A stretch of DNA of 64,000 bases, from positions 248,001-312,000 of the forward strand of contig NZ_BMNR01000005.1 in assembly GCF_014646655.1 (NCBI RefSeq), in the 5' to 3' direction. How positions within the stretch are numbered: position 1 is the stretch's first letter; each line of letters starts with the position of its first letter. The notes beneath the pieces were generated by a model. The model was not told the DNA's origin and searched no databases. It saw only the letters and a list, made by a program, of their open reading frames with translations. Source of the stretch: Yeosuana aromativorans. Its GTDB lineage: Bacteria; Bacteroidota; Bacteroidia; Flavobacteriales; Flavobacteriaceae. The position numbers were made by a program, and so were the translations under genes. This document shows positions 56,044 to 58,094 of the stretch, piece by piece.

Positions 56044-56718
56044 CTATTCTTTTACTATAATAATGGTGGCTTTAACTCCTGTTGCCAAATTCCATCTGTT
56101 TGAAGATACTAAGTTGCCCATGTCATCAACTACTTGGAACTCTGCCGTATTTGGCCCAGATTCTCCTTGGTTTAAGGCTACAAAATCTATTTTATTGAAT
56201 CCTTTTTGCAAGTTGAGTTTTATGCCTTTAAACCCGCCAGTTAAATAGACACTGGATTGAATTACGTCATCATTTAATCGAACCTGAATTAAATCGCCAT
56301 CAACTTCGCCAAAATCACGATAGACAACATTTACAAATTTAGAATTGCTTTTAAAATCACCGAAATACTGATCGGTTGTACTGCCATTACGTTGTTCAAC
56401 CTCTTGTGGAGATAGTTTTGTGCTTTCTAAATTTTTATTGACTTGCTTTTCATACAATTCTCCTGGATTGCCAAAGGTTTCTCCAAACATAGAGAATTCC
56501 TTTTTTGGCTCGTTTACATTTGAATTGGACTTAGGAATGGTCATTCCGTTAAATGAGTTGTTTTGGTTTGGTTTTGAAGGAAGCAGTTTAAACGTATCGG
56601 CGGAATCTTTCTTGCTTTCTACTGCTGGAATAGATCTGGATTTATTTTGACTATCAATTTGTGCATGAGCTGCTATTGAAATCAAGATAAATATATAGTA
56701 TATAAAATTAAATTTCAT
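56044..56718 (-). CDS. Secreted protein of unknown function
   Basis: 224 residues with a signal peptide (MKFNFIYYIFILISIAAHAQ). A Ser/Asn/Lys-rich linker follows, then a C-terminal beta-rich domain (FVNVVYRDFGEVDGDLIQVR, LQKGFNKIDFVALNQGESGP, ending WNLATGVKATIIIVKE). The layout suggests a periplasmic or surface protein. Family not recognised. It converges with the aldo/keto reductase gene. Confidence 0.75.
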   Translation of the reverse strand: MKFNFIYYIFILISIAAHAQIDSQNKSRSIPAVESKKDSADTFKLLPSKPNQNNSFNGMTIPKSNSNVNEPKKEFSMFGETFGNPGELYEKQVNKNLESTKLSPQEVEQRNGSTTDQYFGDFKSNSKFVNVVYRDFGEVDGDLIQVRLNDDVIQSSVYLTGGFKGIKLNLQKGFNKIDFVALNQGESGPNTAEFQVVDDMGNLVSSNRWNLATGVKATIIIVKE

Positions 56719-57011
56719 TTCCTTTAAAAATTACATAAACGATTCTAAGGCCAATTTATTTTTAATGGTTTATTGACCAAAGATATTTTATTATCACAAG
56801 TAGTTCTATACTCTGTACATGTTTTTTGATTCATTTAACAAAAACCGTTCCTATTATTTGTTGTTATTGGTGATTTGCTAACTCCTCTCCTATTTGTTTC
56901 ATCATAAATATGTTAAAAATTGTTAATTTATTATTATGTTATACATAGTACTGTAACAAATTTAATTCTTGGTCGTCTATAAAGTATAAAACAATCAAAA
57001 ACATAGAAACC
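56719..57011. promoter_or_regulatory. Leader and probable promoter region of the peptide array
   Basis: 293 AT-rich bases with no gene. TGTTATACATAGTACTGTAACA (near 56,937-56,958) has 5-base arms TGTTA/TAACA and could be a regulator site. A weak promoter, TTG then about 17 bases then TATACATA, lies nearby. I do not find an exact TAnnTTTG box. The element CAATCAAAAA at 56,992 precedes the first peptide start by 20 bases. Confidence 0.4.
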
Positions 57012-57098
57012 ATGAGAACATTAGACAGTAACAAATTAACAGAATCATTAAAAAATTCTAAAAGCCATCTTTGGAATTGTAAAAGACGCTTTAGATAA
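57012..57098 (+). CDS. Basic 28-residue peptide, array copy 1
   Basis: ATG 57,012 to TAA 57,096-57,098. It starts MRTLDSNKLTESL and ends KSHLWNCKRRFR, net charge near +6, with no signal peptide or membrane segment. Compared with copy 3 it has synonymous codon changes at T3, S6, N7, S18, N22 and R26, which indicates selection on the peptide. It is the most diverged of the three equal-length copies and the only one with a Cys (C23). CAATCAAAAA lies 20 bases upstream. Function unknown. Confidence 0.72.
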   Translation: MRTLDSNKLTESLKNSKSHLWNCKRRFR

Positions 57099-57141
57099 GT
57101 ATCACAAAAAAATAATCATCAATCAAAAAAAACAAACAATC

Positions 57142-57228
57142 ATGAAAACTTTAAACAGCAATGAATTATCAGGAACTTTAAGTACATCTAAAAGTTACAA
57201 TTGGAACACAAAAAGACGTTACAGATAA
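57142..57228 (+). CDS. Basic 28-residue peptide, array copy 2
   Basis: ATG 57,142 to TAA 57,226-57,228, exactly 130 bases after copy 1. It starts MKTLNSNELSGTL and ends KSYNWNTKRRYR, net charge near +5. It differs from copy 3 at five residues (K2R, L9F, T15P, S16A, T23S) and at two silent sites (T12, L13). CAATCAAAAA starts 22 bases upstream. There are no homologues I recognise. Confidence 0.75.
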   Translation: MKTLNSNELSGTLSTSKSYNWNTKRRYR

Positions 57229-57271
57229 CTTTTTAATTACAAATTATTCAACAATCAAAAAATAAACTATT

Positions 57272-57358
57272 ATGAGAACTTTAAACAGCAATGAATTTTC
57301 AGGAACCTTGAGTCCTGCTAAAAGTTACAATTGGAACAGCAAAAGACGTTACAGATAA
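57272..57358 (+). CDS. Basic 28-residue peptide, array copy 3
   Basis: ATG 57,272 to TAA 57,356-57,358, again 130 bases after the previous copy. It starts MRTLNSNEFSGTL and ends KSYNWNSKRRYR. Residues shared by all three copies are T3, L4, S6, N7, L13, K17, S18, W21, N22, K24, R25, R26 and R28, so the C-terminal half is most constrained. CAATCAAAAA starts 20 bases upstream. Confidence 0.75.
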   Translation: MRTLNSNEFSGTLSPAKSYNWNSKRRYR

Positions 57359-57393
57359 GTAGCGTCTTTAAAACCATCATCAATCAAAAAACA

Positions 57394-57528
57394 ATGAGAA
57401 CAATCAACAACATATCAAAACGAATAAACCGCTTAACTACAGAAAATTTTTCTGTGAACAAACGAATCATAAACTTCAATAACTCCATTGAAGCTCTATG
57501 GGTAGGATCTAAACGGTATGCTCATTAA
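57394..57528 (+). CDS. Related 44-residue basic peptide, array copy 4
   Basis: ATG 57,394 to TAA 57,526-57,528. It starts MRTINNISKR like the others and ends ALWVGSKRYAH, echoing the W-x-x-K-R-R-Y-R tail, but with an extra 16 residues in the middle (RLTTENFSVNKRIINF). Net charge is near +6. CAATCAAAAA starts 13 bases upstream. An in-frame TTG at 57,331 would overlap copy 3 and I reject it. It is the last gene before the terminator. Confidence 0.7.
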   Translation: MRTINNISKRINRLTTENFSVNKRIINFNNSIEALWVGSKRYAH

Positions 57529-57574
57529 CCTTTAACTTAAAACTTACAAGAACATGCAGCTAAAAAATTAATCG

Positions 57575-57604
57575 AGTCTAGAAACCAATTTCTAGACTTT
57601 TTTT
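57575..57604 (+). terminator. Terminator of the peptide array
   Basis: AGTCTAGAAA (57,575-57,584), loop CCAA, TTTCTAGACT (57,589-57,598), then seven Ts: a perfect 10-base stem. It lies 46 bases after the last peptide stop and also abuts the convergent gene ending at 57,603. Confidence 0.93.
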
Positions 57605-58019
57605 ATTGTAGTGTATCTTTTGGCACCCCGTAATCAATATAAATCTTTTTCCACCCCCAATCTTTTGCTGCTTTGACATCTATGCCCATATAAATATCTA
57701 TATGGTTTCTTTTACGGCTGTGCATTTTGTCCTTCACAAAATAGACGCCTTCAAATCCTTTTATTTTAACAGGTGTATTGTATTTTAAGCCTTTCTTCAA
57801 TAAATCACTTGACACGGCTATGTATTTCATACCCGGTTTTAAACTATCACCAAATGCGGTAATACTTGGATTGGAATCTGTTTGACTTTTAAGCGAATTG
57901 TATGCCGTTGCGGTTACTTTAATGGTATGCCAGGTATAATTTCGCTCAAATTCATCATGTTTGTCCTTACAACTAAAAGTCAACAAAATAACACATAATA
58001 TATAAAGCCTCATGTTCAT
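57603..58019 (-). CDS. 3D-domain lipoprotein (double-psi barrel)
   Basis: About 138 residues from ATG 58,019 (or 58,013). Signal with lipobox LLTFSC. The rest is a 3D/RlpA-like double-psi barrel: VTATAYNSLKSQTDSN, KPGMKYIAVSSDLLKKGLKY, then YFVKDKMHSRKRNHIDIYMG with the Asp residues that give the domain its name, and DWGWKKIYIDYG. Such domains include lytic transglycosylases (MltA type) and other wall-linked proteins. Longer upstream starts would place lysine-rich residues ahead of the signal peptide and are unlikely. Confidence 0.85.
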   Translation of the reverse strand: MNMRLYILCVILLTFSCKDKHDEFERNYTWHTIKVTATAYNSLKSQTDSNPSITAFGDSLKPGMKYIAVSSDLLKKGLKYNTPVKIKGFEGVYFVKDKMHSRKRNHIDIYMGIDVKAAKDWGWKKIYIDYGVPKDTLQ

Positions 58020-58094
58020 GTTGAAGAATTTTAAATTTAAAGATACAATTTTAATCGAAAAAGAAATCTCCAAGATTCTACTTCGGGATATGAT

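What the first reader, a model, noticed from the sequence alone, without database searches (positions are those of the whole stretch)
57012..57528. Tandem array of tiny basic peptide genes
Three 28-residue frames repeat with starts exactly 130 bases apart (57,012; 57,142; 57,272), and a fourth related 44-residue frame starts at 57,394. Copies 1-3 share TL..SN near the start and KS..WN.KRR.R at the end; copy 4 keeps MRTI and W...KRY. Copies differ at silent positions (T3, S6, N7, S18, N22, R26 between copies 1 and 3), so the protein, not just the DNA, appears conserved. Each ATG has CAATCAAAAA 13-22 bases upstream, and the set ends in a strong terminator. The peptides are strongly basic (about +5 to +6) and lack signal or membrane segments. 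I know of no family with this pattern. Candidates are RNA- or ribosome-binding stress peptides, antimicrobial peptides, or released signals. No peptide-processing or export gene lies next to the array, which argues against a modified secreted peptide.
Basis: partly seen in the sequence, partly recalled or inferred. Interest (0 to 1): 0.88.

Follow-up and report, generated by a model that had tools for sequence, protein, structure and literature searches.

The report
Tandem stress-regulated microprotein genes in Flavobacteriaceae
Many Flavobacteriaceae carry rows of tiny genes that each make a short, positively charged peptide with the same kind of ending, all behind one strikingly conserved switch that looks shared with a membrane-stress operon; I found no name for them and their job is unknown.

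Summary
In detail: three 28-codon genes 130 bp apart and a related 44-codon gene at 57012-57528. They belong to an unnamed microprotein family found in 52 of 149 sampled genomes of the window's family and 7 of 7 of its genus; 59 of 107 distinct loci hold two or more copies. Selection acts on the protein (pN/pS 0.22 within arrays), and nearly every copy has the A-rich start region known from Flavobacterium. 98 of 107 loci have GTAACA-N15-CGTC upstream; controls 0 of 1788. From the promoter alone, 51 of 56 sites lead to short peptides ending W-x3-[RK]-x-[YF], against 2 of 987 random stretches, including a second, 37-residue family in other genera. A palindrome beside it resembles one before the PadR-PspC (phage-shock-like) operon, 29 of 30 loci examined. 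Best reading: effector peptides of an envelope-stress response, usually in genomes without PspA, with an ECF-type promoter. Regulator and molecular target are inferred, not shown.

The parts
56911..56926 (+). two TGTTAA boxes (56911-56916, 56921-56926), upstream part of the conserved cis block
   Evidence: consensus of 98 aligned loci keeps GTTAAAAt.TGTTAA; similar boxes precede the PadR-operon palindrome in most printed loci; positions checked
56932..56950 (.). palindromic operator-like site TATTATG-N5-CATAGTA
   Evidence: one of three exact matches to the pattern in the 3.76-Mb genome
56952..56980 (+). ECF-sigma-type promoter: TGTAACA (-35), 15 bp, CGTCTAT (-10)
   Evidence: spacing 15 in 98 of 98 loci that have it (107 examined) and in 57 of 58 pattern sites
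57012..57098 (+). peptide gene 1, MRTLDSNKLTESLKNSKSHLWNCKRRFR, with its A-rich start region at about 56992-57011
57142..57228 (+). peptide gene 2, MKTLNSNELSGTLSTSKSYNWNTKRRYR, with its A-rich start region at about 57120-57141
57272..57358 (+). peptide gene 3, MRTLNSNEFSGTLSPAKSYNWNSKRRYR, with its A-rich start region at about 57252-57271
57394..57528 (+). 44-aa companion gene (..W-x3-KRYAH), a conserved last member of many arrays
57574..57604 (+). terminator-like hairpin and T run closing the unit
   Evidence: similar element after 40 of 105 family loci, mononucleotide shuffles 5 of 210

Best explanation
This is a self-contained stress operon that makes several near-identical cytoplasmic microproteins from one transcript. 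Shown by sequence: peptide genes under purifying selection, each with an A-rich start region, behind one conserved composite promoter. Inferred from shared cis sequence: an ECF-type sigma factor reads TGTAACA-N15-CGTCTAT, and the palindrome abutting its upstream edge is bound by the PadR repressor of the DUF4870-PadR-PspC/LiaF-TM/Toastrack operon, so the array is switched on in envelope stress. Inferred, weakest step: the tandem genes raise dosage, and the peptides dock in large numbers on one abundant, conserved, anionic partner through the C-terminal W-x3-[RK]-x-[YF] motif (median +5 in the last 12 residues of the 28-aa family). My first choice is the inner face of the stressed membrane or the PspC complex there: a soluble arm of a phage-shock-like response in genomes that mostly lack PspA. 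Rough odds: real peptide genes 0.97; PadR/ECF stress control 0.7; membrane or PSP-complex target 0.35.
For: Family in 52 of 149 family genomes and 7 of 7 genus genomes. pN/pS 0.22 over 77 within-locus pairs; 10 of 10 within-locus pairs with identical peptide differ in DNA. A at -3 in 94-97%, at -12 in 95-100%, at -13 in 85-97%, at -6 in 68-79% of copies, matching the F. johnsoniae determinants (PMC6847099, abstract and passages). GTAACA-N15-CGTC in 98 of 107 peptide-selected loci and the palindrome in 85 of 107, controls 0 of 1788 for both. Promoter-anchored: 51 of 56 sites give W-x3-[RK]-x-[YF] peptides, control 2 of 987. In an order-wide sample 10 of 11 sites that I then examined did so; four of those ten lie in genomes already known to hold the peptides, six in genomes with no earlier hit. 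PadR-operon palindrome in 29 of 30 loci examined; a matrix from those 29 has its best match of the locus at the array promoter in 90 of 107 loci, 20 column-shuffled matrices 1-15 of 107. In the window's genome the operon codes DUF4870, PadR and a PspC/LiaI-LiaF-TM/Toastrack protein. PspA in 14 of 149 genomes, not in the window's.
Against: No expression, peptide or binding data. Binding of this PadR to the palindrome and the identity of the sigma factor are untested. Array sites (CATAGTACTG) and PadR-operon sites (mostly CATAATACC) differ, and only 53 of 107 array regions score above zero against the operon matrix; 17 of 107 fail the best-match test, 9 of 107 lack the promoter and 22 the palindrome. 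In the window's genome alone the patterns are not enriched: palindrome with one mismatch 31 matches against 41 for the reversed control, ECF pattern with one mismatch 10 against 11, exact 2 against 2. PadR is nearly universal (57 of 60 genomes) while arrays or their promoter are in 73 of 149, so the arrays are not needed wherever PadR is. Avoidance of PspA is weak (3 of 14 genomes with PspA have arrays, 64 of 135 without; P 0.09, or 0.047 with promoter-only genomes added), uncorrected for relatedness. Some promoter sites drive secreted proteins instead. The 44-aa model is of little value (pLDDT 72, pTM 0.33).
Confidence: 0.45

Rival explanations
1. Ribosome- or RNA-binding stress peptides: the Arg-rich, Trp/Tyr-bearing tail binds rRNA or mRNA, and high dosage matches the ribosome pool.
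For: Basic, aromatic, polar, multi-copy, A-rich start regions.
Against: No similarity to any solved chain at E<=10 for the 28-aa profile. The cis link found is to a membrane-stress operon.
Confidence: 0.25
2. Regulatory docking peptides: the W-x3-R-x-Y tail binds a protein (anti-sigma factor, PadR/HAAS, protease or RNA polymerase) and tunes the response.
For: Fixed-register motif with differing N-termini across peptide types looks like a short linear docking motif.
Against: Several copies per transcript suggest a stoichiometric target; no regulator-like partner was recognised among the recurrent neighbour clusters, which were judged by eye.
Confidence: 0.2
3. Exported antimicrobial or signal peptides, as in leaderless peptide operons such as phenol-soluble modulins.
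For: Tandem leaderless short ORFs; cationic, Trp/Arg-rich ends; clade-specific versions. An M19 membrane-dipeptidase gene lies within 1.5 kb of 7 of 40 arrays.
Against: No peptide exporter, modification or immunity gene was recognised among the recurrent neighbour clusters (by eye; only some were profiled). The peptides are very polar: best 15-residue hydropathy median -0.78, maximum 0.28. No relatives found in viral contigs.
Confidence: 0.1
4. The transcript acts as RNA (an sRNA, or a leader controlling a downstream gene) and the peptides are secondary.
For: Whole-transcript folding z -2.2 with 20 shuffles. An ExbD/TolR gene follows on the same strand within 1 kb in 17 of 40 loci, and a terminator-like element was found after only 40 of 105 loci.
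Against: Third codon positions vary most and pN/pS is 0.22. In the window a terminator-like hairpin follows and the next gene is on the other strand. No Rfam match in the window.
Confidence: 0.07
5. Type I toxin-antitoxin genes in tandem.
For: Short repeated ORFs.
Against: Such toxins are typically hydrophobic single-pass peptides (recalled); these are not. I did not look for a conserved antisense RNA.
Confidence: 0.03

Closest known systems
HAAS-PadR / PspC-Toastrack phage-shock-like systems (PMC11237479, passages read)
   Same: Shares an operator-like palindrome with the PadR-PspC operon; perhaps the same stimulus.
   Different: No peptide component is described in the passages I read; the peptides match no family of Pfam, which holds PSP families.
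SM6 ECF-type promoters of Flavobacterium psychrophilum (PMC9723704, passages read)
   Same: CGT box in the -10 region, read there as ECF type.
   Different: Those drive T9SS and Band-7 genes; no such -35 or palindrome is described in the passages read.
Phenol-soluble modulin alpha operon of staphylococci (recalled)
   Same: Tandem leaderless short peptide genes on one transcript.
   Different: Amphipathic secreted peptides with a transporter; these are polar and basic, and no exporter was recognised nearby.
Small stress proteins such as E. coli SRA or RMF (recalled)
   Same: Short, basic, stress-linked.
   Different: Single genes without a tandem array (recalled); no sequence match to solved chains found.

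Membership tests
Any named protein family (Pfam, NCBIfam, PHROGs) | match to a curated profile | tested here: not met
   28-aa: 0 for the window copies in Pfam; 0 of 30 members in NCBIfam and PHROGs. 44-aa: 0 (14 members). 37-aa: Pfam only, one of 19 members at E 0.096.
PadR/PSP regulon | same operator as the PadR-PspC operon | tested here: met
   29 of 30 operon loci; best match at the array in 90 of 107 loci, though only 53 of 107 score above zero
PadR/PSP regulon | transcription changes with PadR | not testable with these tools
   needs deletion and RNA-seq
ECF sigma regulon | -35 (TGTAAC) and -10 (CGTC) at fixed spacing | tested here: met
   15 bp in all 98 of 107 loci that have the pair and in 57 of 58 pattern sites
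ECF sigma regulon | a known sigma factor recognises it | not testable with these tools
   no sigma gene was recognised by eye at the nine own-genome sites printed, besides the array itself
Phenol-soluble modulin-like peptides | hydrophobic, amphipathic peptide | tested here: not met
   hydropathy only; hydrophobic moment was not computed
Type I toxin | hydrophobic transmembrane peptide | tested here: not met
Leader peptide / attenuator | controls a downstream gene on the same transcript | tested here: inconclusive
   not so in the window (terminator-like hairpin, opposite-strand neighbour); elsewhere an ExbD/TolR gene follows in 17 of 40 loci
RiPP precursor | modification or export enzymes nearby | tested here: inconclusive
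   none recognised by eye among the recurrent clusters of 40 loci; neighbours were not all profiled

The most novel reading that the evidence does not exclude
Flavobacteriaceae have replaced PspA, the soluble effector of the phage-shock response, with swarms of interchangeable microproteins. One PadR/ECF switch drives readily swapped peptide families whose only fixed part is a C-terminal W-x3-[RK]-x-[YF] docking motif for a shared partner at the membrane.
Probability: 0.2. Interest if true: 0.92.

Novelty: categorically new. Interest (0 to 1): 0.76.

Why it matters
About half of the sampled Flavobacteriaceae genomes (73 of 149 by peptide hit or promoter; three of these have only secreted proteins behind the promoter) carry a class that no library searched here names and that standard gene calling may skip because of size. 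The fixed promoter makes it possible to find new members with no peptide similarity and ties them, by inference, to envelope stress, so the question of what carries out a phage-shock-like response without PspA becomes directly testable. A fixed C-terminal motif with exchangeable N-termini behind one promoter is an unusual way to build an effector set.

Tried and rejected
Rfam scan of the window: no match. PDB sequence search: none for the 28-aa family; one chance-level hit (E 1.2) for the 37-aa family. A phylum-wide profile search (9 of 395 genomes; at most 21 candidates scored per genome) gave four weak hits outside the family (E 0.0026-0.0094) that I take as chance and one at E 0.005 inside it. 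Profile comparison of the 28-aa and 37-aa families aligned the W/R/Y tail but is weak (E 0.0022, probability 13%); 28-aa against the 44-aa companion was not significant (E 0.1, probability 0.6%). I therefore do not claim common descent. The AlphaFold2 model of the 44-aa peptide is uninformative, so no fold search was run. RNA-based function was put low. The viral contig scan found no relative. Literature: ten searches listed no paper that I recognised as describing this; the search for peptide and promoter strings gave 0 papers. Passages were read in three papers only; the rest were seen as listings.

Caveats on counts: the 107 loci were chosen by a peptide pattern that fixes several residues, so invariance there is partly built in; arrays identical in DNA were counted once. 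One search kept the best 80 of 285. Locus L059 gave no peptide and was dropped from the neighbour counts. Of 59 PadR matches 30 were examined. Two of 58 promoter sites lacked held downstream DNA and were left out. Of the five sites without the motif, four lead to 134-188-aa proteins with a signal-like start (by eye) and the fifth to a 37-aa array ending in RNHTH. In one search (16 of 395 genomes) the reversed pattern gave 2 matches, and one true-strand site (L301) leads to no such peptide.

Full report
What is there. Four short frames on the + strand at 57012, 57142, 57272 (28 codons each) and 57394 (44 codons) are as described, followed by a terminator-like hairpin. The next gene is on the other strand. 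The genome holds one more copy elsewhere, with a different companion (L004). The window copies match nothing in Pfam, NCBIfam or Rfam, and 30 relatives nothing in NCBIfam or PHROGs.

A family, not a local oddity. With copy 3 as query, 52 of 149 genomes of the same family match at E<=0.05, many with 2-4 copies about 120-155 bp apart; 7 of 7 genomes of the genus match. Named relatives, from the best 80 of 285, include Flavivirga, Algibacter, Winogradskyella, Lacinutrix and Mangrovimonas. A phylum sample gave only four weak hits outside the family (9 of 395 in all). Among 107 distinct loci there are 180 copies; 59 loci have two or more, median spacing 137 bp. A 38-50-aa frame ending W-x3-[KR]-[RK]-[YF] follows or overlaps in 37 of 80 named loci; in two of these it is, by eye, an N-terminally extended 28-aa peptide.

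The protein is what is conserved. Within arrays pS is 0.355 and pN 0.079, ratio 0.22 over 77 pairs; between loci 0.39. All 10 within-locus pairs with identical peptide differ in DNA. For the three window pairs, pS/pN are 0.68/0.24, 0.74/0.24 and 0.23/0.08. Over 107 first and 73 later copies A prevails at -13, -12, -6 and -3, the positions that raise translation in Flavobacterium johnsoniae (PMC6847099, abstract and passages). So CAATCAAAAA is best read as part of the start region.

The switch. Printing the upstream DNA of first copies showed a conserved block of about 70 bp: two TGTTAA boxes, a palindrome TACTWTG-N5-CATAGTA, then TGTAACA-N15-CGTCTAT. In 107 loci chosen by peptide, 98 have GTAACA-N15-CGTC although 13-17 was allowed, and 85 have the palindrome; 1788 control stretches have neither. 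A -35/-10 pair of this kind is typical of ECF sigma factors (general knowledge; a CGT -10 box is assigned to ECF factors in PMC9723704, passages). In the window's genome alone these patterns, with one mismatch, are no commoner than their reversed controls, so it is the position upstream of arrays across genomes that carries the argument.

Promoter-first test. The pattern ATAGTACTGTAACA-N10..22-CGTCT was searched without regard to peptides: 58 sites in 49 of 149 genomes, reversed-pattern controls 0. Of 56 sites with DNA held downstream, 51 are followed within 700 bp by a 20-50-aa frame ending W-x3-[RK]-x-[YF], against 2 of 987 random stretches. Many are not the 28-aa family: a 37-aa family (PTES..., FFS.F..SKRVRW.E.RNY) occurs in 16 of 149 genomes, also in tandem. 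In an order-wide sample 16 of 395 genomes had the site within one mismatch, all in the window's family (reversed control 2). Of 11 sites then examined 10 led to such peptides, six of them in genomes with no earlier peptide hit and several with new N-termini. Four sites lead to secreted-looking proteins of 134-188 aa. The peptide ends are alike but descent is not proved.

Link to envelope stress. In the window's genome exact palindromes lie at three places: both arrays and upstream of an operon DUF4870-PadR-large membrane protein. [quoted passage not shown] Of 30 such operons examined, 29 have the palindrome at 12-13 of 14 positions; shuffles reach 9-11. A matrix from those 29 finds its best match of the locus at the array promoter in 90 of 107 cases, 20 column-shuffled versions in 1-15; the fit is often modest, 53 of 107 scoring above zero. 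PspA itself occurs in 14 of 149 genomes and not in the window's; it overlaps arrays less than expected, weakly. Two further ECF-type sites in the genome precede a DUF4870 gene and an ankyrin-repeat protein.

Neighbours. Over 40 loci an ExbD/TolR gene follows on the same strand within 1 kb in 17, and an M19 dipeptidase gene lies within 1.5 kb in 7. Arrays also sit among unrelated genes, so this looks like chromosomal context (inference).

Mechanism. I infer that envelope stress relieves PadR repression while an ECF factor drives the array, giving several starts per mRNA and so a high dose of peptide. The 28-aa peptides are polar with a median of +5 in the last 12 residues, so they probably act in the cytoplasm, docking by the fixed tail. 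The inner membrane surface or the PspC complex is my first choice; ribosome/RNA or a regulator are close rivals. No call tests the target.

Novelty. No family, solved chain or paper was found for the peptides, tail motif or promoter string in the searches made. The regulation resembles known PSP and ECF control; for the peptide class and the one-promoter, many-peptides design I know of no precedent.

Noticed in passing
L193 (two sites), L210, L222: The same composite promoter drives secreted-looking 134-188-aa proteins instead of peptides; in L193 the protein has repeats around GF[DN]T..YLP.NFNP.
   Followed up: partly
L218, L220, L221: A third short peptide type (RP.IY...FGW.TD..YD) precedes the 37-aa copies in some arrays.
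   Followed up: no
L004 and L226: The second unit of the window's genome and one of a congener carry a different 42-aa companion (MTTLI.NNSKE...).
   Followed up: no
L258, L264 (own genome): ECF-type sites precede a DUF4870 gene and an ankyrin-repeat protein, candidates for the same regulon, though such sites are no commoner than controls.
   Followed up: partly
56044-56718 (-): Protein without a Pfam match whose cluster (C0) occurs in 25 of 40 array loci.
   Followed up: no
57603-58022 (-): Small 3D-domain-like protein (Pfam 3D below cut-off); its cluster (C3) occurs in 21 of 40 array loci.
   Followed up: no
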